Of a stretch of DNA of 64,000 bases, positions 3,001 to 64,000 are shown in pieces. The first letter of the stretch is position 1. Each line of letters starts with the position of its first letter. This DNA is from Streptomyces sp. NBC_00102 (GTDB taxonomy: Bacteria > Actinomycetota > Actinomycetes > Streptomycetales > Streptomycetaceae). The DNA is taken from assembly GCF_026343115.1 (NCBI RefSeq), contig NZ_JAPEMC010000002.1, positions 558,001-622,000 of the forward strand. The letters run 5' to 3'. Position numbers and translations under genes: made by a program. The notes beneath the pieces are model-generated. The model ran no database searches. It saw nothing but the letters and a program-made list of their open reading frames with translations, and was not told the origin of the DNA.

Positions 3001-6000
3001 CCGGTCGCCCAACCCGGCTGCGGGTGACCCGGATAGGTGCCCGCGGCTATCTGACGTATCGCCTCCTGGAGGTCGCCGGAGCCGCGGAACACGTCCAGGA
3101 CCGCGTCGTCCGGAAGCTTGGCGATCCCCTCCGACGGGCGGCCGTCGGGGCCCGTCGTCGCGAGCGCCTTCCGGTCCTCCTCCGTCACCTCCCGGATCTG
3201 TCCGTTCCGCGGGCGAGGGGCGGGGTCCGGGAGCGCCGCGAGGGTCCGGTGGTGCGGTACGGCGACCCTGATGCTGCCGGTGACGGCCGTCGGCGGCGGA
3301 CCGGCCGGGGGCGGGGTGGCGCCCGGTCCGACGTACGGCGTGGCGGCGGTGTGCTCGGCGAAGCGGACGGTGGGCTCGGTACCCGGACCGTCGTGCAGGT
3401 CGAGGGTGAACCGCGCCGGGATGTCGAAGACCTCGCCGCCCTGGTTCACGCCGACGAACTGCTGGTCCTGGCTCAGCCCCGAACCGACGTTGCCCGCGTG
3501 GGAGATCTGGCTGGTGTAGGCGTAGTCGGCGGCTGTGCCGAGGGTGCCGGAGCTGCCGGGGGCACTCACGGGGCCGCTGACGCTGCCCCCGAATCCGGCC
3601 GTCCAGCCGTAGCCGGAGGACTGCTGCTCCGAGCCGCTCATGACGAAGGATGTCAGGCCGATGAGGTGCAGGCCGGGCAGTGTGCGCACGTGTCGCGTCG
3701 GACGCGGGGCCGCCGGTGCCGGTGCCCTGTCGGGGGTCTCGGTGGCCGGTGCCGGTGCCGGTGCCGGTGTCGGTGCCGGTGCCGGTGCCGGTGTCGTGTC
3801 GGGTGTCGCGGTGACGGGTCCCGGCGTCGTGTCACGGGTGGCGCTCAGGTTCAGCCGGATGCGGCGGGTCCCGCCGCCCGTGGTGGGCTTCTCCAGCCAC
3901 AGGGCGTGACCGCCGTCGACCATCGCGTCCACGGCGGCCCGCAGCCCGACGTCCGAGCGGGCCTGCTCGAACCGGCGCAGGTTGTTCAACTGGGCCTGCA
4001 CCAGAGCCTCGTCGGGCAGCACCACGGTGCGGCTCGTCGTGGTCGCGGAAGCGGGCAGGAACCCGTTCGCCCGCAACCAGACCTCGGCGTGGGCGAAGAG
4101 CTGCTCCGGACCCTCCACGGCCAGCGGGGCCGCAGTGGTGCCGATGCTCCGGAGGTGTTCCAACTCAGTCGGCAGGTAACGGAGTTCATCGTCCTCGGGG
4201 ACCTTCCCCGCAGCGTCGGACCTGCTCAGCACGCGCAACTGCATGCCGTCGTCCCAGGGCCCGAATCTCCGCTCGGTCTCCCCGCCGCCGGGGCGCACGA
4301 GGGTGACGGTGTGCCGCACGCTCGCGGGGGTCAGCAGGTGACTGCGGCTGCTGCGCAGGGAGTGCGAGATGGTCGCGCTGCCCCCGCTGCCGAGGGTGTC
4401 GCTGGTCTGCCAGCGGACCCCGCCCTTGCCCAGGACGGATCCCGCGACCTTGCCCGCGGCGGCCGGGTGCCCCTTGGCGTGGCTGGCGGTGAACGCCGGG
4501 CCTACTCCGAGGTCCACTCCCACGCCGTTGGTGACCTTGGCCTGCCCGTCCATCTTGACGGTGTTGAGGAGATGGCTCTCCAGGTTGATCTTGCTGTCCT
4601 GGCTCTGATGCGTGGGCCTGCCCGGCGTGACCTCCGTTTCCACCTTCAGCATGCCGATCGCACGCCCGCTCGAGTCCAGCAGTAGTGGCGAGAAGATGCC
4701 GCCTGCCCGCTGCATGGGCAGCGTGCCGCGCAGCACCGGCTCGGAGAGGAAGGCTTGCAGCGCCTCCGCGGACGAGTCGGAGAGGCCGGCGAGGTCGCCG
4801 CGGAACTCGCCGTTGACCATCTCCAGGAGTTGGTGCGGTTCCTTGACGCTGTCCACGCCCCACAGCGGCAGTTCGTCCAGGTCGGCGGGTTCCGGCAACG
4901 GCTCGGCGTCGGCCGGCCGCTCCACGCTCAGATGCTCCGGGAACCAGATCGTGACCGGCCCGAGCTCGGAGCCGGGGCCCCAGTTGTCCATCGGGGCCAT
5001 ACGGGGCGTGTCGACCCGCGCCTGCCAGTTCGATCCGTAACCGAAGGCGTGCGAAGACTCGTTGCTGCGCTGTGCCGTCGTCGTCTGCACGGTCTGGGTG
5101 ACGGACGTCGACAGCGAGAGCTGATTGTGTGTCAGAGTCAGGGACGGTCCGAAGTCCACCCCGCGCACCGGCCCGGCGGCCGGGATCGGCAACGTCGCCG
5201 ACCAGGGCACCGACAGGGTCCGGATGTTGCCGGACGACTCGGTGTCGCCCGACTCCTGGGTACCGAGCCCGCGCCGCTCGACGTTCACGGCAGGGTCCGA
5301 GGGGTCACGCGTGCCCTGGCGGAGCGAGGACACGGGGTCGTGCAGGGACAGCCGTACGTCGACGGTCCGCCGCCTGCCTCCGACGTCCACGGTGACCCGG
5401 TGCCCCATGCTGCTGAGCAGATAGGGCAGGTTGATCACCAGTTGCTCGCCTCCCAGTTCACGGCGCAGCTGCGCACGAACGGGGTGCGTGGCCTGCTGGT
5501 CCGCCGGAATCCCCAGCAGGCTCATCACATGCTGGTGCAGGCCCTCGGCGATCCGCGGCGGCAGCGGTTCCACCTGCACCAAGCCCACGCTGCCGTCGCG
5601 CCGACTGCCGTAACTCCGGACGTACGGAGACGGGGCGAGCGGCGCGAGCGGGTCGGCGCCCTCGGACCGGGGGCGCGGTGGCATGGACCCGACGGTGTCG
5701 TCCGGGCCGCCGACGAGTGCGCTGAGCAGGGAGAGATGGCGGGGACGCAGACCGCCCTGGGCGTAACTGCCCTGCTGCTCCTCGGGGATGTCCTCGGTGA
5801 CCGGGCGTTGATAGGTGCCCATCAGGCTGCCGTCGACCTGGGGGCGCTGCGGCGCCGTGGCGTCCCGGTTCTCGTCGCGCAGGCCGAGTTGGTGGCCGAT
5901 CTCGTGGGCGAGGTCCTGCGCGGTGGCGTCGGACCGCCATACGTGCTGCGAGGTGCGGAGGCTGGAACCGGGGCCGGTCAACTCCACCGCCAGATGCGGC

Positions 6001-13808: not shown

Positions 13809-15401
13809 TCAACTATGTTTACTTGGAAGCAACTTGTTGTCGGCGGCGTCGGACGTCCCGACCCGCCCGGCGGGCCCGCCGGGAGAGTCCGCGGAGCCCT
13901 CTGCGCAGGCCCGTGCCGGAGACGCGGGTACCAGCCCGGTCGCCGCCTGCGGACTCAGGTCGGGGCCGGTCGGCAACATCGCCAGCAGCGGGGAGGGCAG
14001 CCCCCGGGCATCGGAATCCGTCCAACCGAGCGCCGTGAGCGCCTCCTTCGAGCCGACCCGGTACTTCACGCCGTCGTCGGCCACGAAATAGGTGGTGGCT
14101 CCGACCGTCCCGCCACCGGCGCCGAGCGCCCGCGCCAGCACACCGTGACCGGGCCGCACGACCACCGCGTCCACCGGCAGGCAGGCGTCCACCACCGCGT
14201 CCTTGCTGCGCTGGGCGACCGGGCCCAGCGCGCCGGTGGGCACCAGCACCGAGCTGATCCGCACACCGTCGCCGCCGGGTTGCACCCGTGCGCACACCGC
14301 GCTGCCGTCGGGCACCCGGGCGGCCCAGGGCGGATTGTCCGGCAGCCCGGCCACCGACGGGTCACGGCCGGTGGTGCCGGGCGCCTGGTGGTCCTTCAGC
14401 AGGTCCGCCCCGATGGGCAGCGCCGTCGGAGAGTCACCGTCGTACGCCTTCGACCGTACGGCGGGATCGCCCAGCAGCAGCGCCACGGCGGTCGAGGTCA
14501 CCGGGGAGAGGCCGGAATCCCCCAACAGGAAGTACTGGGCGCCGGCCTGTTCACCGGAACCCGTCGCCGAATCACCGGGCACCGTCACCCGGAATACCTG
14601 GCCGATTCTGGTCGCCGTACCGTCGAGGGAAGGGCCCTTCGACCCCAGCCCCTCCACCGACGGCGGCGCCAGGGCCGGGCCGGGCACGAACGAGTCCAGG
14701 AACGCGGCCGACACCGGGCGGGGCGTCACCGAGCTGTAGCCCAGCGACAGCAGTGCGCCGGACCTGGTGTCGAGCGGCAGCCGACTGCCCTGCCAGATCA
14801 GGTAGTTCCTCTTGTCGGGACCGCTCACCAACACCGCCTTGTCGGCCCCCAGCGCGGTCGAGCCCAGGGGGGCGCCCGCCGCCACCGCGGTCACCGCCCG
14901 CGTTTTCCTTCCCTCGCTCCCGGCGGCGCCGTCCGTCGCCGTCGCCGAACAGACCGCCCACGCGCCCGAATCCAGGTCGCCCGACGAGGGCACCCCGTCC
15001 GGCGCTCCCGGGATGCCGACCGCGGCACCCACCGGAGTGTCCCGCAGCGAGGCCGCCCCCACGTCCGTCGTCTCCAGGTCCGCACCGCCGATGAGCAGCG
15101 CGGAGGAGTAGTTGCGTACCGGGCGCAGCCGGCCGTCGAGGTAGAGGTAGCGGGCCCCGGTGTCACGGTTGACGATCAGGTTCTTGCCGCTGCGCCACGA
15201 GTCGTTGCCGCCCGGCGAGATCAGCCCGAACACCACCGCCCCCGCGGCGATCAGCACCCCGATCAGCATGCCGATGCCCGCCCCGCGGGTGGTGCGCCCC
15301 AGCGGGCTCTCGGGGGCGTCCGGGTCGGCGAGCAGCATGCCTGAGGTGAGGCGGCCCATGACGAAGGCGTGTGCCTGCACCTGGTCGCGCTTGGATTGCA
15401 T
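13809..15401 (-). CDS. eccB: T7SS core membrane component EccB
   Basis: A 530-residue protein beginning MQSKRDQVQAHAFVMGRL, the conserved EccB opening in which a short cytosolic helix precedes one membrane segment (about residues 40-62, GIGMLIGVLIAAGAVVFGL). The remaining ~460 residues are extracytoplasmic and form the Gly/Ala/Asp-rich repeat region typical of EccB. EccB is part of the inner-membrane T7SS complex with EccC and EccD. The gene follows eccD after 92 bp on the same strand and precedes the esx pair. Length matches the family. Confidence 0.93.
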   Translation of the reverse strand: MQSKRDQVQAHAFVMGRLTSGMLLADPDAPESPLGRTTRGAGIGMLIGVLIAAGAVVFGLISPGGNDSWRSGKNLIVNRDTGARYLYLDGRLRPVRNYSSALLIGGADLETTDVGAASLRDTPVGAAVGIPGAPDGVPSSGDLDSGAWAVCSATATDGAAGSEGRKTRAVTAVAAGAPLGSTALGADKAVLVSGPDKRNYLIWQGSRLPLDTRSGALLSLGYSSVTPRPVSAAFLDSFVPGPALAPPSVEGLGSKGPSLDGTATRIGQVFRVTVPGDSATGSGEQAGAQYFLLGDSGLSPVTSTAVALLLGDPAVRSKAYDGDSPTALPIGADLLKDHQAPGTTGRDPSVAGLPDNPPWAARVPDGSAVCARVQPGGDGVRISSVLVPTGALGPVAQRSKDAVVDACLPVDAVVVRPGHGVLARALGAGGGTVGATTYFVADDGVKYRVGSKEALTALGWTDSDARGLPSPLLAMLPTGPDLSPQAATGLVPASPARACAEGSADSPGGPAGRVGTSDAADNKLLPSKHS

Positions 15402-50484: not shown

Positions 50485-50558
<74 letters not shown>

Positions 50559-51440: not shown

Positions 51441-52091
51441 ATGGCTGATCAAACCGACGAAGCGCGCGCCGTCCCGGGAGTCGTCGTACAGGCCGACGAT
51501 CTCCTCACCCGCGACGGGACGGCCGCATTTCTGGGCGCGGACAGCCGGGTCACACTGCTGGAGGCCGACCGGATCGCCGACGCCGACATCCTGGTCGTCC
51601 TCACGGCCACGGTGAGCGGCAAGACCCTCTCCACGATGAGCCGGGCCAGCCAGGCCACCGAAGGCCGGATCCGGATCGTGCTCGTCGCCGACCACATCTC
51701 GGAACAGCAGCTCGCGCTGGCGGTCAACCACGGCCTGGTGAGCTTCCTGGTGCGCCCCTTCACCAGCTTCAGCCGGATCCTCTCGGCCGCCGTCGAGGCG
51801 CATCGGGGGCGCGCCGCCCTGCCGCCGATCCTGATGAACATGCTGCTGGACCGGATGCGCACCATGCAGAAGGACGAGTGCCCCACCGGCCTGCTGCCGG
51901 TCGAACTCTCGCAGCGCGAACTCGACGTGCTCCAGCTCCTCGCGGAAGGGATGGACACCGTCGAGATAGCCAACAAGCTCAGCTACTCGGAGCGCCTGAT
52001 CAAGAGCGTCATCCAGGCCGTGATCAAGCGGCTCGACCTGCGCAACCGCACCCACGCCGTCGCCTACGCCATCCGTATGGGCATTCTCTGA
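51441..52091 (+). CDS. LuxR-type response regulator with atypical receiver domain
   Basis: A 216-residue regulator. Residues about 10-125 follow the receiver fold, but the position of the phospho-accepting Asp (strand ILVVLTATV) is Thr, so it probably does not work by phosphorylation. Residues about 150-216 are a LuxR HTH (LSQRELDVLQLLAEGMDTVE, then IANKLSYSERLIKSVIQAV). ATG 51441 has AAGGAG 4 nt upstream. No sensor kinase is adjacent. It directly precedes the lectin/ART-like cluster and is the obvious candidate regulator of it. Confidence 0.88.
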   Translation: MADQTDEARAVPGVVVQADDLLTRDGTAAFLGADSRVTLLEADRIADADILVVLTATVSGKTLSTMSRASQATEGRIRIVLVADHISEQQLALAVNHGLVSFLVRPFTSFSRILSAAVEAHRGRAALPPILMNMLLDRMRTMQKDECPTGLLPVELSQRELDVLQLLAEGMDTVEIANKLSYSERLIKSVIQAVIKRLDLRNRTHAVAYAIRMGIL

Positions 52092-52266
52092 CCGACGGTC
52101 CGCTCCGGCCGAAGGTGTCGAGAAGGGTACGGGTGATGTGCGTCCGTGCAGGCCCGCTCCGCACCGGTCCACCCCCCTACCCGCTCTCCCTAAGCTTCCC
52201 GGAGAGTCGTCGCCATGTGAGCGGCTGGGCCGATGACCGCACCACCTGGACCGGGAAGGCATGGAG

Positions 52267-53403
52267 ATGAACCACCGCGAGCCACAGGCCGGACACTCCG
52301 ACGAGTTCGCCGGAGCGCCGGACGGGCAGGCGGTATGGGAGGGCGAACTGCCCTGGCAGCTCCCGCATCCGGACCAGGCGGGGGAGGAGAGCCCGCTCCA
52401 CGCGACCCCCGAGGCACGCGCGGCCGCAGAGGTCCCGCCCACGAACCCCGATGCGACCGCTGTCCGTCCCGTCGCGCAAGGCCCGCTCTCGGACGCGACC
52501 GCTGTCCCTCCCGTCGCGCACGGCCCGGTCTCCGACACGTCCACCCATGCCCCCACCGGTACGCCCTCCGGTGCCGAGGGCGAGTCGACGGGCCGCCGTA
52601 CGAGCCGGCCCGCGACCTCCCCGCAGCCGACGGGCGGCGGCGGACGACGTCGGCGGTCCGCCGGCGCAGGAGGGCGGCGGCCGGGTTCGCGCGGTCACCT
52701 CGCCAAGCCGATTCTGGCCGGAGCCGGCCTGCTCAGTGCGCTGCTGCTGCTCGCCCCGCACCTCTTCGGCGACGACGCGCCCCTGCAGACGGTCAAGGCC
52801 GGCGCGGAGGACAGAGAACCGGAGACCGACACCGCACCCGACCCGGGCCACCCCGACGCCGCGAAGACGTCACCGGGCCCGGCGGCGTCCGCCACGCAGC
52901 GAGGCAAGGACTCCGCGGGCGGCGGGCACGACGCCATCGTCGAGGTGGCGGCGACCGTGCCGACCGAGTCGGCGAAACCCGCCACCGGGCCGACGGCCGT
53001 CCCGAGCGCGACCAGGAGCGCCACGCCCACCAAGGCCGCCCCCGCACCGGCCGCGACGACGGAACAGTGGACGACCACCGTGGTGAACGGCACCCGAGTG
53101 CTGGATCCGGGCCAGCTGTGGTCCACCAACCGCATCGGCCTGAACTTCCAGGGCGACGGCAATCTGGTGCTCTACGACACCAAGGGCACCCCGCTGTGGT
53201 GGTCCGGGACGGTCGGGCAAGGCGGGGTACGGGCCGTCTTCCAGGCCGACGGCAACCTCGCCGTCTACAGCCAGGACTCGCGGACCGTCTGGTCCTCGCA
53301 CACCGAGGGCCACGACGGCGCCCGGCTGGTGCTCCGGGCCGACGGGAACATGGTCATCGAGCAGGGCGGCACCGTGCTGTGGTCCACCGGTACGGCGATG
53401 TGA
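52267..53403 (+). CDS. Membrane-anchored B-lectin protein
   Basis: A 378-residue type II membrane protein: a disordered N-terminal ~140 residues in the cytosol ending in a basic RRRRS cluster, one membrane helix (ILAGAGLLSALLLLAPHLF), an Ala/Pro/Thr-rich linker, and a C-terminal bulb-type (B-) lectin of about 110 residues. The three mannose-binding-like motifs read FQGDGNLVLYD, FQADGNLAVYS and LRADGNMVIEQ (canonical QxDxNxVxY), so sites one and two look the more intact. ATG 52267 has better ribosome binding spacing than ATG 52261. It is followed by an ART-like gene. Confidence 0.85.
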   Translation: MNHREPQAGHSDEFAGAPDGQAVWEGELPWQLPHPDQAGEESPLHATPEARAAAEVPPTNPDATAVRPVAQGPLSDATAVPPVAHGPVSDTSTHAPTGTPSGAEGESTGRRTSRPATSPQPTGGGGRRRRSAGAGGRRPGSRGHLAKPILAGAGLLSALLLLAPHLFGDDAPLQTVKAGAEDREPETDTAPDPGHPDAAKTSPGPAASATQRGKDSAGGGHDAIVEVAATVPTESAKPATGPTAVPSATRSATPTKAAPAPAATTEQWTTTVVNGTRVLDPGQLWSTNRIGLNFQGDGNLVLYDTKGTPLWWSGTVGQGGVRAVFQADGNLAVYSQDSRTVWSSHTEGHDGARLVLRADGNMVIEQGGTVLWSTGTAM

Positions 53404-53631
53404 CCTGCTCCGCAACCTTTCTGACGGACTGTCGGTCCCGCCCGGTCCGTCCCCGCACGAGCGGACGCCCCCTCGCGTGCCGGTCAGAACGAGCCCGTAG
53501 GGTGATCCAGCCGGCGGCGGCGGAGCGAAACTCGGCGGAGCGGACCGGAGTTGGCCGTTGATCCCTGCGTGGAACCGGCCGATCACGCCCGCTCACCGGC
53601 GGGCAGACCCGCTTGCACGGAGAAGCCGGCC

Positions 53632-55683
53632 ATGAGTGGCAATCACACAGGAGTTACCGCCCCCGGTGGAGGGGCGGTGCCGCCGCCCGTACCGGGGCCT
53701 CGCCAGGGCCCGGGCCGACCGGACCCGGACGCGCCGTCCGTCGGCGGCGCTCCCGCTTTCGGGCGCCAGGGTGTCGGCGGCCCGCGTTTCACCGCCCACC
53801 GCGCGGGTGGGGCCTGGCTGGTGGCCCCGGTCGGCCCGGTGGATCCGCGCGCTCTCGCCTTCACGGCCGGGCTCGCCCCGGACGCCGAGTGCACCGTCGT
53901 CGTGGCGGACCTGCCCGACGGGTCGGACGACGCGACCCTGGACCGGCTCGTCCGGGCGATCCCCGCCGGGTCGGACGACCTGAGGTTCGTGTTCGGCCGG
54001 CCGCTGCGGCGTGACGCCGTGACGGTCGCCCAGCATCTCGCCGGACGACTGGGCCGGACGGTCATCGCCGCGGCAGGCGCACCACTGCCCACCCCCGGCG
54101 GAGGTCTCTGGGTGGGTCCGGACAGCGGACCGGGATGGATGCGCTGCGCGCCCGGAGGCCCCCGGACGCAGGACTCCAGGGCCTTCCCGAAACCCTCGTG
54201 GGAACCCACCGTCCCACCGCGCCCGTGGGCGATCGGCAGAAGCGTGGCGGAGCCCCTGCCCGCCGGCGTCTGGCTGAGGCCCTCGACGGAGGACCCCGCC
54301 CGCTCCGCCCGGTGGACGCGGCTCGCCGGAGGGCCCGCGGTGTCCACCGAGCTGATGACCGTGGCGATCGGCGCCCCCGGGGCCCCGGCGCTGCCGGTGG
54401 CGGACATCGCCCGGTTCTGGGAGGACCTTCCCCCGTGGCTCCGGCCGGCGGTCCGCTTCCTCTGCTACGGACCCGCCCGGCTGAGCGGCGGACGGCACCT
54501 CGGAGACGTCCTCGCCCAAGTGGTCGGCGAGCCGGTGCGTTTCCTCAGCGGCATGCCACAGGACACGGGCGACCGGCGGGAGGTGGTGCTGACGACGGAC
54601 GACGGCACGCCGGGCCGCCCGCTCCGGGCCCACGAGTTCGTCCACCTGCCCCCGGCCGGATTCCCCGCTCCGCCGCCCTCCCCGTTCGCGGCGGCCCACC
54701 GATGGCCCCTCGGCGCGTTCCCGGAGATCCGGCCCGGTACCCACCGCCTCGCCGACGACGTCGTCGTCGAAGTGGTCCGCAGCGGCCTGTGGGTGCGGCC
54801 GACACCGGCCCCCGCGCACGCCCCGCAGATGCGGGACGCCGACCCGGACCCCGCACACGAACGCGTGCTCTGCGACGCCGCGTCGGAGGAGCACCTTCCG
54901 CGGCTCCGCCGGCTCGCGCAGGACCTGGTGCGCTCCTTTCCCCCCGGACTGCGCGGCTCGGTGCGCCTGGGTACCGGCCGCCCCACGGCCCCGGCCGGCC
55001 GTGCGTCCTCGCAAGCCTTCCGGGCCCCTCTCCCCGGCGCGGCCCGGTCGCCCGCCGCCCCGTACCCCGGGCCCGTGGGCCGTACCTCCCCCGCGGCCGA
55101 GGCGCCGCGCGGAAACCCCGGACCGGCCGAGGGCGCCCCGGACCCCTCCGACGCCCTCGCGGCCGTCCTGCGCCGACTGGCGGGAGAGGGCGCGCCGGAC
55201 GTACCGGTGACGTCCATGGTCGGGAACACGCCCGGCCCCACCGAGGACGTCCTGCTGGGCAGGGGGCTGCGGATGCTTCCCCTCCTCCCCGGGCCGACCG
55301 GCCTGCGGGCCACCCTCGACGAGCCGATGCGCCGCTGGTACGCCGAACAGGCCGTGGTGACCGACCCGCACGCCTGCGAGGCGTCGACGCTGGGCCCCGC
55401 CGGGGCGCCCGGCAACACCGCCTTCCTGATCCTGTCCGTGAACGGCCGCAGCACGGAATCGCTCGACCCGCTCCGACCGGACCGGGTGATCTTCCTGCCC
55501 GGCTCCCGGTTCCGGGTGCTGGAAGCCGGGCCCGGTGCCACGGGCGTGGTCATGATGAGGGAGCTGGCGCCCGAGGAGCCGCCCCTCGACCGCGTACGCG
55601 ACGCGGCGGCGGTACGGGAACTCACCCGGGCCTGGCAGGACTGGCGGGCGGGGCGGCCCGGCACCCGGCCGGGCCGCCACTGA
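53632..55683 (+). CDS. Multidomain protein with alpha/beta repeats and ART-like C-terminus (paralogue 1)
   Basis: A 683-residue protein that I do not recognise as a named family. Residues about 45-440 contain about three alpha/beta units, each ending in a Gly-x-Trp-x-x-Pro strand (GGGLWVGPDSG, AGVWLRPSTED, SGLWVRPTPAP). A PxPSWE motif lies near residue 195. A Pro/Ala-rich linker (about 450-520) leads to a C-terminal domain (about 530-660) with CEAST and PDRVIFLPGSRFRVL, patterned like the end of R-S-E type ADP-ribosyltransferases, where ExEVLFPPGTRF is typical. The catalytic Glu position is Arg here, so it may be inactive. ATG 53632 has GGAGAAG upstream. No signal peptide is seen. Confidence 0.7.
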   Translation: MSGNHTGVTAPGGGAVPPPVPGPRQGPGRPDPDAPSVGGAPAFGRQGVGGPRFTAHRAGGAWLVAPVGPVDPRALAFTAGLAPDAECTVVVADLPDGSDDATLDRLVRAIPAGSDDLRFVFGRPLRRDAVTVAQHLAGRLGRTVIAAAGAPLPTPGGGLWVGPDSGPGWMRCAPGGPRTQDSRAFPKPSWEPTVPPRPWAIGRSVAEPLPAGVWLRPSTEDPARSARWTRLAGGPAVSTELMTVAIGAPGAPALPVADIARFWEDLPPWLRPAVRFLCYGPARLSGGRHLGDVLAQVVGEPVRFLSGMPQDTGDRREVVLTTDDGTPGRPLRAHEFVHLPPAGFPAPPPSPFAAAHRWPLGAFPEIRPGTHRLADDVVVEVVRSGLWVRPTPAPAHAPQMRDADPDPAHERVLCDAASEEHLPRLRRLAQDLVRSFPPGLRGSVRLGTGRPTAPAGRASSQAFRAPLPGAARSPAAPYPGPVGRTSPAAEAPRGNPGPAEGAPDPSDALAAVLRRLAGEGAPDVPVTSMVGNTPGPTEDVLLGRGLRMLPLLPGPTGLRATLDEPMRRWYAEQAVVTDPHACEASTLGPAGAPGNTAFLILSVNGRSTESLDPLRPDRVIFLPGSRFRVLEAGPGATGVVMMRELAPEEPPLDRVRDAAAVRELTRAWQDWRAGRPGTRPGRH

Positions 55684-55702
55684 GGCCCCGTCGCCCCGAA
55701 GC

Positions 55703-57802
55703 TCAGTCGTCGTAGGTGGTGGTGCACGTGTCGTCGTGGAAGAGCGCGCCCTCGGTGACGGGGAGATCGTCGGCCGGGTCCTGGACGACGGTGGTCAGCC
55801 CGGTCAGACGGTCCGCGCACGCGTGGGCGGCGGAGTCGCTGTCGCCGCTGCCGCCTCCGAGGTACATGTCCAGCCAGGTCGTGGCTCCTTCGGGAGCGGT
55901 GTCCAGGCTGTGGCAGGGCCCGTTCTGCGGGCTGCCGCCGTCACCGCAGGCGTCCTCGACGATGAAGTACCGCCGCACCTTGGGTATGTAGAAGCGTGTT
56001 CCCGCCGGGTAGTCCAGCGTGTCCTCGCCGCCCTCGGTGGTGTGGCCGACCGCGAGGGTGATCGGGTCTTCCCACGTACCCGTACCACCGGCCTGGTCGT
56101 GGATGACGGGGGCGGAGATCTGCGCACTGCCCCGGGGCGTGTTGTCGAACCAGGTGTAACCCGTCGTGAACGCGTTGCTGATCGTCTTCCCGGAACCACC
56201 CGCACCACCCGAACCACCCGGAGACCCCGCACCCGCACGGCCGGAGGGCGGGACGGTGGACGCGGGCCCGGCGGGAGCCCGTCGCGCCGACGGCTCCTGC
56301 GACGACGACGGTGAGGCTGACGCCTGCGACGAGCCCGCGGGGAGCGGATCGACCATGCCCTCCGGCAGTGTCGCGGGAACCCTCTCCTGATCGGTGGTGT
56401 TCACCGCGCCGAACGTCTTCAGGAACTGGTGCTCGCTCTGCTCGGTGCCGCTGCAGTCCTCGGACAGGGTTCCCGCCTCCGGGCACGCCCTGTCCCGGCC
56501 CAGCGACCAGAACGCCAGCTGCTGGATCCCCTTCTCCACCGCGAAGTCCGCCAGCCGGGACGCGTCGTCCGTGGTGAACACCTCGCCCTCGGTGTCGTTC
56601 ACCCCGATCATGGGCGTGTTCCCCTCCATCGCCCACAGTTCCGCGTCCGACTTCGACGGCCAGATCCGCCCCAACTGCCCGTGCAGCGCCGTCGCCGCGT
56701 CGATCGCGGCCTGCCCCATGTCCGCCACCGCGGACCCGTAGTCCATCGTCATGATGTTCACCAGTGACACCCGCACCCCGGCCCGCTCCGCGTCCTGGAG
56801 CATCTCCACCCCGTCCGCCTCCAGCCCGGCCGCACCCGACGGCAACGTGAACTGCACGTCCAACCGTCCGCCCGCGCCCTCGACATCCTTCTGCAACGCC
56901 GCCAACGCCTCGTTACGACGCCCGTACGCCTCCGTGTCCGCCAGCGCCGCGCCTTCGAGGTCGAAGTCCAGCCGCGAAAGCCCCAACACGTCGACGACCG
57001 ACCGGTACTGACTCTCCAGCGCGTCGACCGAGCCGCACGCCGAGGCGAGTTCCGTCCCCGACGCACCACCGAACGACGCGATCACCTCGCCCCCCGAACC
57101 ACGCAGGCCCTCGATCGCCGACAGCCAGCCCTCGTCCGAGACCGGCGTGTCCCCGTTGAACATCGCCTTGCAGCCCCCACCGTCCAGCACGAACCCCAAG
57201 GTCGCGTACCGCAACCCAGCCGCCCGCGCCTCCTCCAGCACCGACGGCGATCCCCACGTCTCCACGTACGGCGCCGCGAACCGCGACGGGAAGGCCGAAC
57301 CCGTCGCGAGCGGGGGGTTCCCCGGCGCGAGGGCGGGGTCGGACGAGGACGAAGAGGACGGGCGGGTGATCTCCCTGCCGTCGTCGGTGACGAACTTCCA
57401 GGTGATGCCCTGCACCAGCCCCTCGTCGAGCGGCGCGAGCCGCTCGAACGCCGTCCGGCTGAGGTCGAGATGGTCGGCGTCACAGGAGGGGCACTGGTCC
57501 CTGACCGGCACGGTGATGGACTTGCCCTCGTACGACACCTCGACGGAGACACCGTCGCAGATCGGGTCCTCGTTGGGGTCGTCGGTCGTCCACCACTCGT
57601 GGGACACCGCCACGAGATCCTCGGTCGCGGCGTCGACGACGTCTCCGCAGGCGCCGTAGCCGGCGGCGTCGTAGTACGTCATCCGGCCGGTCATCTCCTG
57701 GTTGGCGGCCGGGTCGTCGGCCAGGGCCAGGGACACACCGCCCAAGGTGACGGCCAGCAGCGCGACCGCGCCGCCCGCGATGATCCGATTCCGGAAGGAC
57801 AC
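55703..57802 (-). CDS. Secreted DPBB (expansin-like) and GH18 chitinase-like protein
   Basis: A 699-residue protein with a signal peptide (IIAGGAVALLAVTLGGVSLALA). Residues about 40-150 form a double-psi beta-barrel like expansin/RlpA (TYYDAAGYGACGD, then VRDQCPSCDADHLDLS). Residues about 170-440 are a GH18-type TIM barrel whose active-site strand reads LSRLDFDLEG, with the catalytic Glu present and the first Asp of DxxDxDxE replaced by Ser. A Ser/Pro/Gly linker precedes a C-terminal domain (about 545-699) with paired cysteines and WFDN, ISAPVIHDQAGG motifs. It should act on cell-wall or environmental glycans. GTG 57802 follows AGGAG. Confidence 0.85.
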   Translation of the reverse strand: MSFRNRIIAGGAVALLAVTLGGVSLALADDPAANQEMTGRMTYYDAAGYGACGDVVDAATEDLVAVSHEWWTTDDPNEDPICDGVSVEVSYEGKSITVPVRDQCPSCDADHLDLSRTAFERLAPLDEGLVQGITWKFVTDDGREITRPSSSSSSDPALAPGNPPLATGSAFPSRFAAPYVETWGSPSVLEEARAAGLRYATLGFVLDGGGCKAMFNGDTPVSDEGWLSAIEGLRGSGGEVIASFGGASGTELASACGSVDALESQYRSVVDVLGLSRLDFDLEGAALADTEAYGRRNEALAALQKDVEGAGGRLDVQFTLPSGAAGLEADGVEMLQDAERAGVRVSLVNIMTMDYGSAVADMGQAAIDAATALHGQLGRIWPSKSDAELWAMEGNTPMIGVNDTEGEVFTTDDASRLADFAVEKGIQQLAFWSLGRDRACPEAGTLSEDCSGTEQSEHQFLKTFGAVNTTDQERVPATLPEGMVDPLPAGSSQASASPSSSQEPSARRAPAGPASTVPPSGRAGAGSPGGSGGAGGSGKTISNAFTTGYTWFDNTPRGSAQISAPVIHDQAGGTGTWEDPITLAVGHTTEGGEDTLDYPAGTRFYIPKVRRYFIVEDACGDGGSPQNGPCHSLDTAPEGATTWLDMYLGGGSGDSDSAAHACADRLTGLTTVVQDPADDLPVTEGALFHDDTCTTTYDD

Positions 57803-58236
57803 GGTTTCTCCTGTCGGTGTGGTGAGTCGTGGGCCGGCCGCTCGGCCCGAGGGGTCGGGCGGATGCGGCAGGCCGTTCGGGGGCCCGTCGGGCACACAGG
57901 ACGGGCCGGGGTACGGGGCCGGGCGTGAACGCGCGCCGGGCCGATCATGGGAGATCGGGGGAGTGCGTGGCGGGGAAGCGCCGGTCGTCTGCCCGGCGGG
58001 CCACCCACTGCGCCTCTTCGGTCACCGTGCCGCCCTGTTGCCGCGCCGGGCGGGGTCGTGGTGCCGTCGCGGACGACGTGGCCACTCGTGCACGGCCGGC
58101 CCGCAAAAGGGCAGTGCCCCGCCACCGGCCTTGTCGGTCTCCGGGGCTCTCTGCTGCGATGGGCCGGGTCGGGTGCGGCCGCCGGTCACCGGGGACACGC
58201 ACACAGGACGGCGAAGACGGCGAGCGGTGAGAAGGC
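57803..58236. other. Gene-free stretch upstream of the DPBB-GH18 gene
   Basis: No frame here has both a ribosome binding site and typical third-position GC, apart from an implausible 97-codon frame at 57947-58240. It presumably holds divergent promoters. Confidence 0.5.
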
Positions 58237-58425
58237 ATGAGCGAGACTCCCGGCCGGCTCACCGGCTGCCGGCGCACCGGGGGCCCGCTCCCGTGCCGCG
58301 CCGGCACGGCCACCGGCCCCGACTCCGCCACGGAGCGCGCCACGCGCACCCGGTCGTCCACCGCCGCCCGGCCCCGGCGCGGTGACGGCACGACGTACGG
58401 GGGCGGTACGCCGTGCGTCGGCTGA
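58237..58425 (+). CDS. Possible small ORF preceding ART-like paralogue 2
   Basis: This 62-codon frame starts at ATG with GAGAAGG upstream, has about 95% G/C at third positions and overlaps the next gene's GTG by 13 bp. The predicted peptide is Arg/Thr/Gly-rich with four cysteines and no recognisable domain. Second-position GC is also very high, so it may be chance. Confidence 0.3.
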   Translation: MSETPGRLTGCRRTGGPLPCRAGTATGPDSATERATRTRSSTAARPRRGDGTTYGGGTPCVG

Positions 58426-61277
58426 CCGGTGGGCTCGGCCCCCTGCGGACGCTCGCGGCGAGACTCGGGGGCGCTCCAGGGGCCGCCGGCTCCGGGCCCG
58501 TCGTCCTGCTCACCTCCGACAACGACGAGTCGGCCGGTCTCACGGCGACCGTCGACGCCCTGCGGCACGAGGACCCGGACCACGCGACCGTGGTGGTCGC
58601 GGCGGGCCTCGAAGGGTCCAGGGCCCTCTGGCGTCAACTCACCCCGGTGCTCGACGGTTTCAGGAAGTCCGGCATCACCGTCGTACGGCTGGTGTGGGCG
58701 GGCGCGGGCGCCGACGAGCCCGGACGTCCCGCCCCCGCGCGGCGGATACGCGACGACTGGCGGCTGGAGGTCGTCGCTCCCGCCGGCCCGGTGGTGGTCG
58801 CGCCCGGCGGATCGCTGTTCGCACCGTCCGGAGTCGGCGGTACCGGCGGGTGGTGGCGCTTCGCCCCGGACCTGGGGCCGCAGCCTTTGGGCCTGCGCCA
58901 TCCCGTACCGAGCTGGGAGGACGCCGCGGCCCACCTCGCCTCCGACGCCGTCGAGGGCCATGTGGTCGAGTCCGTCCCCGCGGGCGTGCTGATCCGCCGG
59001 GCCGAACCGCTGCCGCCGGCCGCGCTGTCGGTCGGCGCCTCCATTCCCGTGGACGGCCACCGGCTCGCGGTCGTGGTCGGCATCCCCGGCGCCTCCCCGG
59101 TCACCTCCCGTGCCGTGACCGAGCTCCTGACCCGGCTGCCCCCTCGCGCCCGGTCGGCCGCGCGGCTGATCCCCGGAGACGGGCGCGACCTGCTCGCCAC
59201 CGGTCAGGAAGCCGCCGATCTGCTGGGCACCGAGGTGGAGATCGTCAGCGGCGTGCCCGCCCTGCTGGAATCGGCGGACGGCACGGAGACCGAACCGGCC
59301 GTGGTGCTCATCGGACCGGACGGCGAACCGTCGTGGCGGCCCTACGCGGAGACGGTCGCCTGCCTGCCCGCCCAGGACGGCCGCACCCCCGCACCGCGCA
59401 TCGTGCGCCGGCGGTCCCCCGTCGCGGGCTCGGCTCCCGTACCCGAGGGCGGGGCACTGCCGTTGGGCGACCGGTGGGGGGTCGTCGTCACCCGCTCGGG
59501 GCTGTGGGTGGGGCCCCGCGAAAGCTCCCGGCCCGAGACCCTCGGCCTGCTCCTCGACCCCGACACCATGGTCGTCGACATCGGCGTCCCCGGACGGCCC
59601 GTGGACGACGGACTCTGGCCGGTGCTCGACACCTTCCTGGACGAACTGGAACCGGCCGTGGTCGAGCGCACGACGCTCCACCTCAGGGGCGCCTGCACCG
59701 CGCAGGGCGGACGGCAGGCACGACGCCTCGCCGACCGGCGCGGACTCACCCTGGAGCACGACGAGGAGCCGGCGGCCGAGCACCGCACGACGGGCGGCGC
59801 GCCACGGGCGAGGGAGGGGGACGCCTCGGCGCGGGAAGCGGCGCGGAGGGAGGCGGCCCCCGAAGTACCCTGGCACGCCTCGCCGATGAGCGTACGCATC
59901 CGGCACGTGGCCGCGCACCCCCCGGCCGCCACCGGCGACCGGCCCTCCGCGGTCGCGGCGGCCGACGGGCGGGCGGTACGCCTCACGTCGACGGCGGGCG
60001 GTGGAGGCGATGCCTCGCCCTCCCGGACCGCGGACGGTCCGGGGGCCTCTTCCCCGGCCCCGGCTCCTTCCTCCTCCCCGGCACGGGTGGGTGGCCCCAC
60101 CGCGCTCGGCGTCGGGATGCCTGCCGCACTCGGCGTCGGGATGCCCACCGGCCGGATCGCGTTCACGGCTCCGGCGCCGGCGCCGGCAGTCACGACCGCA
60201 CCACCCGGGGCGCCGACGAGCACCACCGGCACCCCGGACGCCCACTCCGCGTCCCCCGCTTACGCCGCCTCCTCCGCGTACGGCGCCGGAGCGCCGCTGC
60301 CACCGGGGTTCGCCGAGGCGTTCGCCGCCAGTCGGCCCGTGGGCGCTCGGCCCGTGGGCGGACCGGCTGAGGGCGCCGTGTCGGCGTGGGCTCCGGCCGC
60401 CCCGGAAACCGCCCGGGCCGCCCCGCCGGAAGGCACCCCGCCCGCCCCCTCGGCACCGAACCCGCCGTCCGCGCCCTCGCGTTCGGCCGCCCCTGCCGCG
60501 CGCGTCGGCCCTCTCCACCGGAGCGGTCCCGTCGAACAGCAGGCGCTGCGCGCGCTGGCCGGGGAGCAGTGGTGGCAGCAACAGGCCGCGGTGGCGCGCA
60601 CCTTGACGGTGATGCCCGGTCTGCGCGGGCAGGACCAGGACGACGCCGTACTCGCCGACCTGATCGCCGTACGCTCCTTCCTCACGCTCGACGACTCCCC
60701 GCTCGGCCGACGCTGGCTGGAACACCGCCTGGCGGCCGGGTCCGCCGACGCCTACCCCAGCCTGGTCGGTCTGGCGTCCGGTCTGCGGAGGCTCCCGTCG
60801 TACCGGGGGATCGTCGTGCGCGACGTGGCGACGTTCTCCCCGGAGGCGCGCGCACTGACGGCCGGTACGGAACTGTGCCACCCGGGGCCGGTCGGCGCGT
60901 ACGTGCTGGAGGGCGCACCCGCGTCGGCGGGCGACCGGTATCTGATCTGGTCGACGACCGGGCGCAGGGTGCGCAGCCTGACCGGGCCGGCCGCGCGGCC
61001 GGGACAGGGCGAAGAGGTCGTCTTCGGTCCCGGCACCCGCTTCCGGTTCCTCGGTACGCGGGGTGGGCACGGCGCCTCCACGGTGCTGCTGCGCGAGGTG
61101 GCACCCGCCGACCCGGTCGCCCGCTCCGGCGAACAGGACGCCTCGGACCGGGGCGTACGCGAGCAGCTCTCGGCAGCCGCGGACAGCCACCCCACGACCG
61201 AGGGCGCCGCGCCCTGGCCCGACCGGTTCTCCGGCCGGCTCCCCGAACGGGCCCCGCACCGCGACGACCACGTCTGA
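58413..61277 (+). CDS. Multidomain protein with alpha/beta repeats and ART-like C-terminus (paralogue 2)
   Basis: A 954-residue paralogue of the protein at 53632. Three alpha/beta units (about 25-440) share its landmarks: HPVPSWE near 165, PAGVLIRR near 190 and SGLWVGPRES near 365. A long Pro/Ala/Thr linker (about 450-710) precedes a C-terminal ART-like domain (about 720-910): LPSYRGIVVRD supplies the Arg of the R-S-E pattern and GEEVVFGPGTRFRF keeps a Glu directly before VVF. Of the three paralogues this looks the most likely to be active, if the fold assignment is right. It starts at GTG 58413, without a strong ribosome binding site. A lectin gene follows 53 bp later, probably in the same operon. 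Confidence 0.7.
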   Translation: MRRLTGGLGPLRTLAARLGGAPGAAGSGPVVLLTSDNDESAGLTATVDALRHEDPDHATVVVAAGLEGSRALWRQLTPVLDGFRKSGITVVRLVWAGAGADEPGRPAPARRIRDDWRLEVVAPAGPVVVAPGGSLFAPSGVGGTGGWWRFAPDLGPQPLGLRHPVPSWEDAAAHLASDAVEGHVVESVPAGVLIRRAEPLPPAALSVGASIPVDGHRLAVVVGIPGASPVTSRAVTELLTRLPPRARSAARLIPGDGRDLLATGQEAADLLGTEVEIVSGVPALLESADGTETEPAVVLIGPDGEPSWRPYAETVACLPAQDGRTPAPRIVRRRSPVAGSAPVPEGGALPLGDRWGVVVTRSGLWVGPRESSRPETLGLLLDPDTMVVDIGVPGRPVDDGLWPVLDTFLDELEPAVVERTTLHLRGACTAQGGRQARRLADRRGLTLEHDEEPAAEHRTTGGAPRAREGDASAREAARREAAPEVPWHASPMSVRIRHVAAHPPAATGDRPSAVAAADGRAVRLTSTAGGGGDASPSRTADGPGASSPAPAPSSSPARVGGPTALGVGMPAALGVGMPTGRIAFTAPAPAPAVTTAPPGAPTSTTGTPDAHSASPAYAASSAYGAGAPLPPGFAEAFAASRPVGARPVGGPAEGAVSAWAPAAPETARAAPPEGTPPAPSAPNPPSAPSRSAAPAARVGPLHRSGPVEQQALRALAGEQWWQQQAAVARTLTVMPGLRGQDQDDAVLADLIAVRSFLTLDDSPLGRRWLEHRLAAGSADAYPSLVGLASGLRRLPSYRGIVVRDVATFSPEARALTAGTELCHPGPVGAYVLEGAPASAGDRYLIWSTTGRRVRSLTGPAARPGQGEEVVFGPGTRFRFLGTRGGHGASTVLLREVAPADPVARSGEQDASDRGVREQLSAAADSHPTTEGAAPWPDRFSGRLPERAPHRDDHV

Positions 61278-61330
61278 TTCCGCGGACCGGCCCCGCTGCG
61301 CCGGTCGCACCCATCGCAGAGGAGAAGAGC

Positions 61331-63022
61331 ATGTCCGCCGATCGAAGGACGCCGCAGCGCGGCACACCGCCGGAGGCCGCCGACCAGTTGCGGATGCGGC
61401 GGGCCGTCGTGCTGTCCGCCCCCTCCGCCGGCCCCGGCCCCGACCCCGGCCCCGAGCCGGAGACGGGGAACCGGGGGACCGAAGGCGCGCACCGCGAGGG
61501 CCGGAACCCAGGGCGGCAGGACGGCCGCGAGCGCGGAAGGCACGACGGACCGGGCGGCGGTACGGAGGGGGGCGCGCCCGCGCCCGCCAAGGGCAACCAC
61601 CGGCCGATGCTCGCCGCCGCCGCGGTGGCCGGTGCCGTGCTGGTCGCGTTGCCGCTGGCCCTGAGCGGCAACGACAAGAACGACCACGAGCTCGACTACG
61701 AGGCTTCGGGCCGGGAGACCGCCTCCCCGCCGGGCAGCGGCCCGAACTTCACCCTCGACGTGATGACGCCGACGCCCTCGGAGAGGACACGCGTCCACGA
61801 GGGCGACAACGCTCCCGGGACGACCCCGTTCTCCCCGTCGAGGGCTCCCTCCTCGTCCGCGCCTTCGGCCTCCCCCTCTCCTGCCGCGTCGTCGGCCACC
61901 CCCGCCATCCCGGTCTCGCCCCGGAAGACGTACCAGGGCCCCGGAATACGTGCCCCGCACGCCTCCGTACGGGAGAGCACGCACCCCTCCACCCCGACGG
62001 CCCGGTCCGCGACGCCGAGCCCCGAGCCCGGCCGGGTCCAGGTCGCCCGCGTCGAGGCCGAGAAGCCGGACACCGCGGCGGCCGTCGAGGCCGGCCGGGG
62101 GCCCACCGCGGAGCCCAGCACGGGGCCGGGCTCCGGACCCACGACGGGTCCGGGCTCCGAGCCCACGACGGGGCCCGCGACCCCGGCGGAAACCCCCGTA
62201 CTGCTGTCCGCACGGGTGGCGGAGCCCGTGACGGTGCCGACGCCGACGCCGGGTCAGGAGCACGCGGAGGAAGGACACTCGGAGGAAGGACACACGGAGG
62301 AGGGGCGTACGCAGGAGCTCGCCGCGCAGGAGGCGGCGGCCCAGGAGGCGCAGAGGGCGACGACGCCCGAGGGCGGCCCCACCGGACCCGCCGGACCGGA
62401 CGCGCCGACCACGTCCACCATCACGTCCACCGGTCCAAGCACGGCAGCCGCCCCCAGCGCGCCGACGGACCCCCACGTACCGACCGATCCCGGCACGCCG
62501 ATGGACCCCTCCACGGCGACCGGTCCCGCCACGCCGACCCCAGAGACCGCAGCGACCCCGACGACCGAAGAGATCCCACCGACGGTAGAGACCCCACCGA
62601 CCGTCGGGACCACGGTGACGGACCCCACCGTCCGGACCACGGAGACCCTTCCGGGTGGTCAGGACGCGGGGGCCGCCGTTCCGCAGGACGCGGGCGACAC
62701 GGTCGTACGGGCGACCCGGGTCCTGGAGAGTGGCGAGACGATCGAGTCCGAGCGGGCCGCCCTCTCCATGGGCGAGGACGGCAACCTGGTCGTCACCGAC
62801 GAGAACGGCCTCGTCCGCTGGTCCTCGCACACCGAAGGCCGGGGCCACAAGGCGGTGTTCCAGGCGGACGGCCACCTCGTCGTCTACACGAGCGACGACC
62901 GGACCGCGTGGTCCTCCGGCACGGCGGGGCACGACGGTGCCGAGCTGGTGTTGCAGAGCGACGGTGACGTGGTGATCGAGCAGGACGGCGCCGTCCTGTG
63001 GGTCAGCGGAACCGCCCACTGA
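61331..63022 (+). CDS. Membrane-anchored B-lectin protein, second copy
   Basis: A 563-residue protein with the architecture of the lectin at 52267: a cytosolic charged N-terminus (about 90 residues), a membrane helix (MLAAAAVAGAVLVALPLAL), a very long extracellular Pro/Thr/Ala/Glu-rich stalk (about 125-450) and a C-terminal B-lectin. Binding motifs read MGEDGNLVVTD, FQADGHLVVYT and LQSDGDVVIEQ; the second and third depart from QxDxNxVxY at the Asn position (His, Asp), so affinity may be low or altered. ATG 61331 follows GAGGAGAAG. Its last 20 bp overlap the converging gene. Confidence 0.85.
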   Translation: MSADRRTPQRGTPPEAADQLRMRRAVVLSAPSAGPGPDPGPEPETGNRGTEGAHREGRNPGRQDGRERGRHDGPGGGTEGGAPAPAKGNHRPMLAAAAVAGAVLVALPLALSGNDKNDHELDYEASGRETASPPGSGPNFTLDVMTPTPSERTRVHEGDNAPGTTPFSPSRAPSSSAPSASPSPAASSATPAIPVSPRKTYQGPGIRAPHASVRESTHPSTPTARSATPSPEPGRVQVARVEAEKPDTAAAVEAGRGPTAEPSTGPGSGPTTGPGSEPTTGPATPAETPVLLSARVAEPVTVPTPTPGQEHAEEGHSEEGHTEEGRTQELAAQEAAAQEAQRATTPEGGPTGPAGPDAPTTSTITSTGPSTAAAPSAPTDPHVPTDPGTPMDPSTATGPATPTPETAATPTTEEIPPTVETPPTVGTTVTDPTVRTTETLPGGQDAGAAVPQDAGDTVVRATRVLESGETIESERAALSMGEDGNLVVTDENGLVRWSSHTEGRGHKAVFQADGHLVVYTSDDRTAWSSGTAGHDGAELVLQSDGDVVIEQDGAVLWVSGTAH

Positions 63023-64000
63023 GCGCGACCGGCCGGCCACCCGCGACCGGCCGGCCCGACACGGCGGCAGGACCGACCGGACCGACCGGACCGACCGGAC
63101 CGGCCGGACCGACCGGACCGGCCGGACCGGCCGGACCGGCGGGTCTGCGCGGACCGTCCGGCCCTTCCGCGCCACTCGCACCGTCCGCACCGTCGCGGGC
63201 GGGCGGGCCGTCCGGCGTGGGCGGCGTGGCGAACGGGTCCCGCACCGGACCACGCACCACGCCGCTCGCCTCGTCCTCGCGCCAGAGCCGCAGCGCCGCC
63301 ACGAGTTCGCGCAGGGCGGCCTCCCCGGTGGCGCCTGCCCCGCAGAAGCCGGCGGGCGGGAGTTCGCCCATCAGCACCACCGCGCGCTCACCCGGCCGGG
63401 CACGGACCTGGAGGACCTCGAACCGTGTGCCGGGCGGGAACAGCACCCGGTCCGGCTGCTCGGGTTCGAGGAGGGCGGTCCGGCGACCGGTGGCGGAGCG
63501 GATGAGGACGTCGGTGTTGCCGGGGCGGCCCGGCGTGCCCGTGAGCGACGCCGCGCACACGCCGTACGCGGTGGCGAACCGGTGCGCCCGGTAACGCCGG
63601 AGCGCCGCCGGGTCCAGCTCGGCGCGCAGGACCACCACCCCGGCGTAGGCGGGGAGCAGGGACAAGGCCGCCAGCGCGGACGGATCGGCCGTCGCCGGGG
63701 TGGAGGTACGGACGCGCCCGGGTTCCTCCCCGTCCGGCCGGGCATGGGCGGCGAACCGCATTCGTACGGCGGTGAGTCCGGCGCGCACGGTCTCGGGCGG
63801 CAGCAGTCCGCCCAGCCCGGGTTCGTGGCGCAGCGCCAGGTCGACGACCGCGGCGTCCGCGGGCGACCCCGCGGCAGGGCCGGGGTGTACGAGGAGGGGG
63901 GCGGCGGGAAACCCGGGGCCGCCCCGACCGGAGGCCGGGACGTGCGCGGCAGAGCCCGGCGCGGCAGGGACGTGCGCGGCCGGGGCCGGCGCGGCGGCCG
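63003..64000 (-). CDS. ART-like paralogue 3 with collagen-like tail, N-terminus beyond right edge
   Basis: The frame is open from the right edge to the stop at 63003, giving at least 332 residues without a start. It contains a Pro/Ala-rich linker and then the ART-like domain found in the proteins at 53632 and 58413: LRRYRAHRF, CAASL, and PDRVLFPPGTRFEVL with Arg in place of the catalytic Glu. After it comes a unique tail of about nine Gly-Pro-Ala/Val triplets, like a bacterial collagen segment, and then a basic end. Converging with the lectin gene, it shares 20 bp with it. Third paralogue of the cluster. Confidence 0.7.
   Translation of the reverse strand, partial: AAAPAPAAHVPAAPGSAAHVPASGRGGPGFPAAPLLVHPGPAAGSPADAAVVDLALRHEPGLGGLLPPETVRAGLTAVRMRFAAHARPDGEEPGRVRTSTPATADPSALAALSLLPAYAGVVVLRAELDPAALRRYRAHRFATAYGVCAASLTGTPGRPGNTDVLIRSATGRRTALLEPEQPDRVLFPPGTRFEVLQVRARPGERAVVLMGELPPAGFCGAGATGEAALRELVAALRLWREDEASGVVRGPVRDPFATPPTPDGPPARDGADGASGAEGPDGPRRPAGPAGPAGPVGPAGPVGPVGPVGPAAVSGRPVAGGRPVALSGRFR
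63071..63142 (-). repeat. Eight 9-bp tandem repeats encoding Gly-Pro-Val/Ala
   Basis: Units of GACCGACCG or GACCGGCCG type repeat eight times and encode the collagen-like GP(V/A) tail of the minus-strand gene. The start lies 49 bp past the stop of the converging lectin gene. Confidence 0.85.

What the first reader, a model, noticed from the sequence alone, without database searches (positions are those of the whole stretch)
51441..64000. Lectin/ART-like gene set: candidate undescribed surface or secretion-linked system
Two type II membrane B-lectins (52267, 61331) each adjoin a paralogous multidomain protein (53632, 58413), and a third paralogue (63003) converges on the second lectin. An atypical response regulator precedes them and a DPBB-GH18 enzyme lies between. 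The paralogues share PxPSWE and Gly-x-Trp-x-x-Pro strands and one C-terminal domain, so the unit looks duplicated. Repeated pairing of a sugar-binding anchor with a possible NAD-dependent fold suggests a functional module, perhaps acting at the cell surface during development or against competitors.
Basis: partly seen in the sequence, partly recalled or inferred. Interest (0 to 1): 0.75.

Follow-up and report, generated by a model that had tools for sequence, protein, structure and literature searches.

The report
Lectin-paired accessory genes of type-VII secretion
These genes are the edge of a large bacterial protein-export (type VII secretion) locus in an actinomycete, where membrane-anchored sugar-binding proteins are paired with an unannotated protein family whose toxin-like domain has in most members lost its catalytic residue and which in many other genomes sits inside the secretion operon itself.

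Summary
The three paralogues (here m1, m2, m3) share a C-terminal ADP-ribosyltransferase (ART) fold and an N-terminal module of internal repeats without a convincing Pfam or PDB sequence match. One is inside the window; the other starts just past its right edge and holds a fourth paralogue (m4) between EccB and an EccA-like AAA gene, a third TM-lectin and a 10,589-aa ORF. Of 109 family genes in 92 loci, 45 adjoin EccB, 42 of these also the beta-helix-AAA gene; 82 have a secretion core gene in the fetched stretch. The 12 B-lectin ORFs found in these loci all adjoin a family gene. Two clades largely, not strictly, follow two secretion-system types. In the m1/m3/m4 clade 0 of 80 ART domains keep the catalytic Glu (69 have Arg); in the m2 clade 11 of 16 keep Arg and Glu. 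Most likely: soluble adaptors of a type VII secretion variant, built on toxin folds, with membrane lectins as glycan anchors. Only linkage, fold and residues are shown. T7SS and giant actinobacterial proteins are known; nine literature searches found no account of this family or its lectin pairing.

The parts
51441..52091 (+). NarL/LuxR-type response regulator with degenerate receiver
   Evidence: GerE 46.8 bits; receiver columns in 47 sequences; the same family lies near EccC or next to a family gene in other loci
52261..53403 (+). l1: type II membrane B-lectin (TM 151-169; one exact QxDxNxVxY site)
53632..55683 (+). m1: soluble by hydropathy; N-terminal repeat module (about residues 50-455) plus ART fold (484-650) with Arg at the catalytic Glu position
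55703..57895 (-). DPBB/papain-inhibitor-like plus GH18-like protein with an N-terminal hydrophobic segment; a similar protein lies at the far end of the second T7SS locus (C2:682277-684493)
58413..61277 (+). m2: paralogue of the other clade; ART domain keeps Arg and Glu, no STS motif
61331..63022 (+). l2: type II membrane B-lectin (TM 93-111; no exact QxDxNxVxY site)
63003..64000 (-). m3: C-terminal part of the third paralogue, in the sister group of m1; gene continues to about C2:623351-623417
13809..15401 (-). EccB of the first T7SS locus (T1) inside the window
   Evidence: PF05108 346.7 bits
15494..16906 (-). EccD of T1
   Evidence: PF19053 298.7 bits
17133..21125 (+). EccC of T1; nearer than the T2 EccC to those beside m2-clade genes at L008, L009, L111
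   Evidence: PF01580 285.5 bits
21166..22422 (-). subtilase (mycosin position) of T1
   Evidence: PF00082 87.9 bits
22459..25791 (-). right-handed beta-helix fused to AAA domains, T1
   Evidence: PF13229 151 bits, PF00004 135 bits; 45% identical to the T2 protein
1..8774 (-). start of a 6,638-aa ORF, giant candidate substrate of T1 (continues left of the window)
   Evidence: ORF at C2:546858-566774; never domain-scanned (one search failed)

Best explanation
The cluster is the accessory arm of a type VII secretion (T7SS) variant. Shown: the m family is genetically tied to T7SS loci that carry a beta-helix-AAA gene, in many of them as EccC-EccD-EccB-m-AAA; its C-terminal domain is an ART fold; its two clades differ in keeping or losing the catalytic Glu; membrane lectins adjoin it. 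Inferred: m proteins are cytosolic adaptors that work with the AAA protein (often translationally coupled) to present a giant substrate to the EccBCD channel, using the repeat module and the ART fold as binding surfaces. In the m1/m3/m4 clade the ART domain is a non-catalytic docking module; m2 may retain activity. The type II lectins hold the machine or substrate to mannose-type glycans of the own wall or of neighbouring hyphae. The DPBB-GH18 proteins and the glycosyltransferases further right would remodel the wall, and the atypical regulator, probably without phosphorylation, controls the set.
For: Right flank: PMT-like and GT2 glycosyltransferases, YbaB-like, 117-aa ORF, 10,589-aa ORF with weak WXG-like start, TM-lectin l3, EccC, EccD, EccB, m4, beta-helix-AAA, WXG100-like, LAxTG protein. 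Context of 109 m genes in 92 loci, sorted in this order: 45 adjoin EccB (42 of them also the beta-helix-AAA gene), then 19 a lectin, then 17 the regulator, 17 more have a T7SS core gene in the stretch; 82 of 109 have one in all. The m stop overlaps the AAA start by 4 bp in 20 of 33 measured junctions. In 41 genomes (own included) 9 of 10 with m have a near-full-length beta-helix-AAA against 2 of 31 without (Fisher 1.5e-6, table made by hand). ART fold; Glu kept in 0 of 80 of the m1/m3/m4 clade. B-lectin adjacency 12 of 12, binomial p 2e-6 (loci not independent). Same order regulator-l1-m1-gh-m2-l2-m3-PMT in S. griseoviridis (L024), partly in L025 and L027.
Against: No experiment; interaction with AAA protein or giant is inferred from gene order. 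T1 in the same genome has no m gene beside it, so m is not needed by every such T7SS. 11 of 109 m genes had no T7SS gene, lectin or regulator adjoining in the stretch fetched, and 15 of the 19 lectin-adjoining ones have no T7SS gene in theirs. 31 of 41 genomes lack m although 36 have EccB. Clade-to-system matching is not strict: L094 EccC is 54 vs 55% and eight Pseudonocardiaceae loci hold m1/m3/m4-clade genes near an AAA gene slightly nearer to T1. 11 of 12 B-lectin loci are streptomycete by tree label or plasmid record and the other is the unnamed same-genus genome G020, so the lectin link is shown for Streptomycetaceae only. The m2 clade keeps Arg and Glu, which argues for catalysis there.
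Confidence: 0.55

Rival explanations
1. The m proteins are themselves T7SS effectors: ART toxins, with the N-terminal repeats as a delivery or receptor part, and the lectins as immunity or targeting partners.
For: ART fold nearest to interbacterial and effector ARTs; m2 clade keeps Arg and Glu in 11 of 16, 5 of these with a Ser motif nearby; ART domains are known in giant actinobacterial toxins (PMC3482391, passages).
Against: 0 of 80 in the larger clade keep the Glu; no WXG model hit in m1-m3 and no hydrophobic N-terminal segment in m1-m4 by hydropathy (no signal-peptide program was run); position inside the core operon, coupled to the AAA gene, would be unusual for effectors (the last point is my general knowledge).
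Confidence: 0.22
2. The m proteins are immunity or decoy proteins: toxin-like folds that bind and neutralise the catalytic domains carried by the giant secreted proteins.
For: Toxin fold without catalytic residue in the larger clade; lies near giant ORFs in several loci.
Against: The 8,757 of 10,589 residues of the second-locus giant that were scanned have no Pfam family; m keeps its place in the operon across families, which immunity genes rarely do (general knowledge).
Confidence: 0.08
3. One reading: a free-standing surface or developmental unit of lectin plus NAD-dependent enzyme, only by chance near the T7SS.
For: 15 of 19 lectin-adjoining m genes have no T7SS core gene within the fetched stretch.
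Against: Family-wide T7SS linkage (82 of 109) and co-occurrence with the beta-helix-AAA gene; in the window's genome the set lies about 6-20 kb from the giant ORF, and l3 lies in the T7SS locus itself.
Confidence: 0.1

Closest known systems
ESX / T7SSa of Actinomycetota (EccB, EccC, EccD, EccA, MycP, WXG100)
   Same: EccB, EccC, EccD above curated cut-offs; EccA-like AAA domain at T2 (TIGR03922 260 bits, below its cut-off 467) and a WXG100-like protein below cut-off.
   Different: AAA domain fused to a beta-helix; no EccE hit on C2, both EccE hits lie on C1; no subtilase found at T2 with three subtilase queries; an m gene between EccB and AAA; membrane lectins.
T7SS variants c-j of Garrett et al. 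2024 (PMC11217815; abstract and passages seen)
   Same: Idea of T7SS subtypes with extra components.
   Different: Seven of the eight are of Bacillota by the abstract; the words lectin, right-handed and YbaB do not occur in the main text.
Giant actinobacterial toxins with ART and caspase domains, Zhang et al. 2012 (PMC3482391; passages seen)
   Same: Giant Streptomyces proteins; ART domains.
   Different: Here ART domains sit in separate 683-986-aa proteins and mostly lack the Glu; the 83% of the T2 giant that was scanned has no Pfam domain.
R-S-E clade ARTs, such as PDB 6dre (Tre1, name recalled) and XopAI (6k93)
   Different: Catalytic triad incomplete in all four copies of this region.
Lectin-like bacteriocins, putidacin L1 family (NF033557)
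   Same: B-lectin domain, 78-92 bits.
   Different: Far below cut-off 275; one short lectin domain on a membrane anchor.
C80 cysteine protease domains of large toxins
   Same: Best structural rows for the N-terminal module, first and second repeat separately.

Membership tests
Type VII secretion locus (flanking loci T1 and T2) | EccC-type ATPase plus EccB and EccD | tested here: met
   PF01580, PF05108, PF19053 above cut-offs at both loci; TIGR03924/03925 above cut-off at T2
Type VII secretion locus (flanking loci T1 and T2) | WXG100 proteins | tested here: inconclusive
   WXG100_ESAT6 29.5 bits at T2, below cut-off 44.85; small ORFs of T1 not scanned
Mycobacterial-type ESX | EccE | tested here: not met
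   PF11203 hits two places in the genome, both on C1, none at T1 or T2; some ESX-4 variants also lack EccE (PMC11217815)
Mycobacterial-type ESX | Mycosin-like subtilase | tested here: inconclusive
   Present at T1 (PF00082); not found at T2 by tblastn in C2:538001-715000
ADP-ribosyltransferase fold (m1) | ART fold | tested here: met
Active R-S-E ART (m1, m3, m4) | Catalytic Glu of the C-terminal motif | tested here: not met
   Arg at the column in m1, m3, m4; 0 of 80 in the clade keep Glu; columns placed by recalled motif knowledge
Active R-S-E ART (m2) | Arg, STS Ser and Glu | tested here: inconclusive
   Arg (with a one-column shift) and Glu present, no Ser motif
B-lectin (l1, l2, l3) | B_lectin domain over cut-off with QxDxNxVxY sites (motif recalled) | tested here: inconclusive
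   l1 met: 35.1 bits over cut-off 32.4, one exact site; l3 30.2 bits under cut-off but two exact sites; l2 27.9 bits, no exact site
C80 cysteine protease (N-terminal module) | C80 fold | tested here: inconclusive
Phosphorylatable response regulator | Phospho-acceptor Asp in the receiver | tested here: not met
   0 of 47 at the column chosen; some have an Asp one or two columns further
GH18 chitinase-like (55703-57895) | GH18 domain over cut-off | tested here: inconclusive
   21.7 vs 29.6 bits

The most novel reading that the evidence does not exclude
A new core-associated component of an actinobacterial T7SS subtype: a conserved scaffold made of degenerate toxin folds (a pseudo-ART and protease-like repeats) that hands a giant secreted protein to a beta-helix-AAA motor, and that is tied to the cell surface by membrane lectins; one clade (m2) may still be an ADP-ribosyltransferase that modifies the machine or its cargo.
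Probability: 0.4. Interest if true: 0.78.

Novelty: new variant of a known kind. Interest (0 to 1): 0.62.

Why it matters
T7SS outside mycobacteria and Bacillota is little understood, and what exports the giant proteins of streptomycetes is open (my general knowledge). Here is a compact, testable set (EccCDB, m, beta-helix-AAA, lectin, giant) whose unannotated m family occurs in five actinobacterial families among the loci fetched. A toxin fold conserved with its catalytic residue replaced would be a clear case of an enzyme fold recruited as a secretion part.

Tried and rejected
Simple duplication of a lectin+m unit: rejected by the tree. m as a strict EccE replacement: T1 also lacks an EccE hit yet has no m beside it. 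N-terminal module as a known family: in 61 members the best Pfam E-value was 0.0026 (GGDEF_2, 3 members), and PDB sequence hits (best E 0.016) are mostly antibody chains, taken as chance; whole-model Foldseek gave nothing at E 0.001; the C80 resemblance is weak. The first and third repeats match each other poorly (probability 20.5). Search for the repeats outside the m family in the ORFs of the 92 loci and 177 kb of the genome, T2 giant included: none at E 0.01. The T2 giant's own repeats: no self-hits. An ART profile from the m family does not hit the T2 giant or the L018 giant piece. My first triad census put the m2-clade Arg one column off and counted 0 of 96 with Arg and Glu; with a shift allowed it is 11 of 16 in the m2 clade, and the report uses that. 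The ricin-type adjacency (5 of 9) is weak evidence: four of the five are sequences the profile was seeded with. Nine literature searches showed no paper on this set in their listings; preprints and most subscription papers are not covered.
Full report
What is there. l1 and l2 are type II membrane proteins with one hydrophobic segment and a C-terminal B-lectin domain, over the Pfam cut-off in l1 only. m1, m2 and m3 have no Pfam or NCBIfam hit over a cut-off; m3 shows a collagen-like repeat tail and a weak XopAI-family hit (E 0.0027) on the ART part.

The missing context. The window is G000:C2:558001-622000 of an 8.6-Mb genome. Reading on to the right gives m3's other end, two glycosyltransferases, a YbaB-like gene, a 117-aa ORF, a 10,589-aa ORF that begins with a weak WXG100-like stretch (17.6 bits, cut-off 44.85), a third TM-lectin (l3), EccC, EccD, EccB, m4, a beta-helix protein with EccA/CbbX-like AAA domains (260 bits to EccA, cut-off 467), a WXG100-like gene (29.5 bits, below cut-off), a LAxTG-type surface protein and a second DPBB-GH18-like protein. 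I call this locus T2. The window itself holds the core of another T7SS locus, T1, at about 1-26 kb. The genome has five EccB genes.

Family context. One peptide pattern matched 85 stretches in the collection of 84,980 species genomes; 71 were confirmed and all 71 loci were used. I added 12 plasmid loci of the 29 hit rows, and 9 stretches around m genes of related genomes (two of them from G000): 92 loci. They hold 109 m genes in 90 loci (adjoining means within 600 bp, 1.5 kb for lectins; classes assigned in this order): 45 adjoin EccB, 42 of those also the beta-helix-AAA gene; 19 adjoin a lectin; 17 adjoin the atypical regulator; 17 more have a T7SS core gene in the stretch; 11 have none of these. 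In all, 82 of 109 have a T7SS core gene in the stretch. The loci were chosen by similarity to m, not by context, but related genomes are not independent. In 41 genomes (own included) m is in 10 and EccB in 36. The five strong hits in other genomes G023, G030, G031, G034, G037 all have EccB directly upstream; a sixth, G035, is a partial hit near the start of a contig with no EccB hit. Near-full-length beta-helix-AAA genes (E at most 1e-117, picked by hand; in G005 the parts lie in two ORFs) are in 9 of 10 genomes with m and 2 of 31 without (Fisher p 1.5e-6); counting a weaker hit in G010 would make it 3 of 31.

Two clades, two systems. The N-domain tree (108 rows, quick method) splits m2-type (21 rows) from m1/m3/m4-type (87 rows) with full support; the tool warns of long branches. 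At three T7SS loci with m2-clade genes EccC is nearer to T1 (L008 65 vs 50%, L009 59 vs 51%, L111 67 vs 51%); at the EccB-adjacent loci that hold EccC it is nearer to T2 (57-72% vs 46-55%). The match is not strict: at L094 EccC is 54 vs 55%, and eight Pseudonocardiaceae loci (L063, L065, L071, L073, L076, L080, L088, L094) hold m1/m3/m4-clade genes although their AAA gene scores somewhat higher with T1. That the window's m2-l2 pair belongs to a T1-type system placed among T2-type relatives is an inference.

Lectins. In the 92 loci 12 B-lectin ORFs were found with a profile seeded on the genome's own three lectins, and all 12 lie within 1.5 kb of an m gene (chance about one in three each). Of 9 ricin-type ORFs 5 do, but four of those five were seeds of the profile. 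B-lectin and ricin-type genes follow m2-clade genes at the same place on different plasmids (L007, L008 against L006, L020), which suggests that sugar binding is what is kept. In the 41 genomes, of the four lectin hits outside G000 with E under 1e-24, three lie near EccB or an AAA gene of this kind (G005, G014, G022) and one does not (G018); a weaker one, G020, does; the other weak hits were not examined.

Regulator. The 51441 regulator belongs to a family of 47 in these loci without an Asp at the phospho-acceptor column (with the caveat given above); it lies near EccC or an m gene in many.

Mechanism. Shown: linkage, fold, residue loss, no TM segment in m1, m2 and m4 by hydropathy (m3 has one window over the limit, inside the ART core), frequent 4-bp overlap of m with the AAA gene (20 of 33 junctions; in this genome there is a 4-bp gap instead). 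Inferred: m as adaptor between giant substrate, AAA motor and EccBCD; lectin as surface anchor; wall enzymes as helpers.

Literature. Giant actinobacterial proteins with ART and caspase domains were reported in 2012 (PMC3482391, passages). T7SS variants c-j (PMC11217815, abstract and passages), exported alarmone synthetases near T7SS genes (PMC12691689, passages) and the lipocone survey (PMC12419801, passages) do not describe this set in what I read. The nine search listings showed no paper on it (see Tried and rejected).

Noticed in passing
window 1-25791: Core of a T7SS locus (EccB, EccD, EccC, subtilase, beta-helix-AAA, giant ORF of 6,638 aa running out of the window) that the finding does not mention.
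   Followed up: partly
L011:14509 to L013:6278 (C2:629509-661278): One ORF of 10,589 aa with a weak WXG100-like start; no Pfam family in the 8,757 residues scanned and no internal self-similarity by BLASTP.
   Followed up: partly
L020 (NZ_CP109179.1 175202-265261): Annotated CDS of about 90 kb (about 30,000 aa) named glycosyltransferase, upstream of an m gene and a ricin-type lectin on a Streptomyces plasmid.
   Followed up: no
window 51441-52091 and 46 relatives in other loci: T7SS-linked family of NarL-type regulators without an Asp at the phospho-acceptor column and with Lys to Arg.
   Followed up: partly
window 50485-50559: tRNA-Pro (ggg) directly left of the cluster; could mark an island border.
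   Followed up: no
window 22459-25791 and L107:11470-14886: Fusion of a right-handed beta-helix with AAA domains, near-full-length copies in 11 of 41 genomes by hand count; the one literature search that named the beta-helix found no paper.
   Followed up: partly
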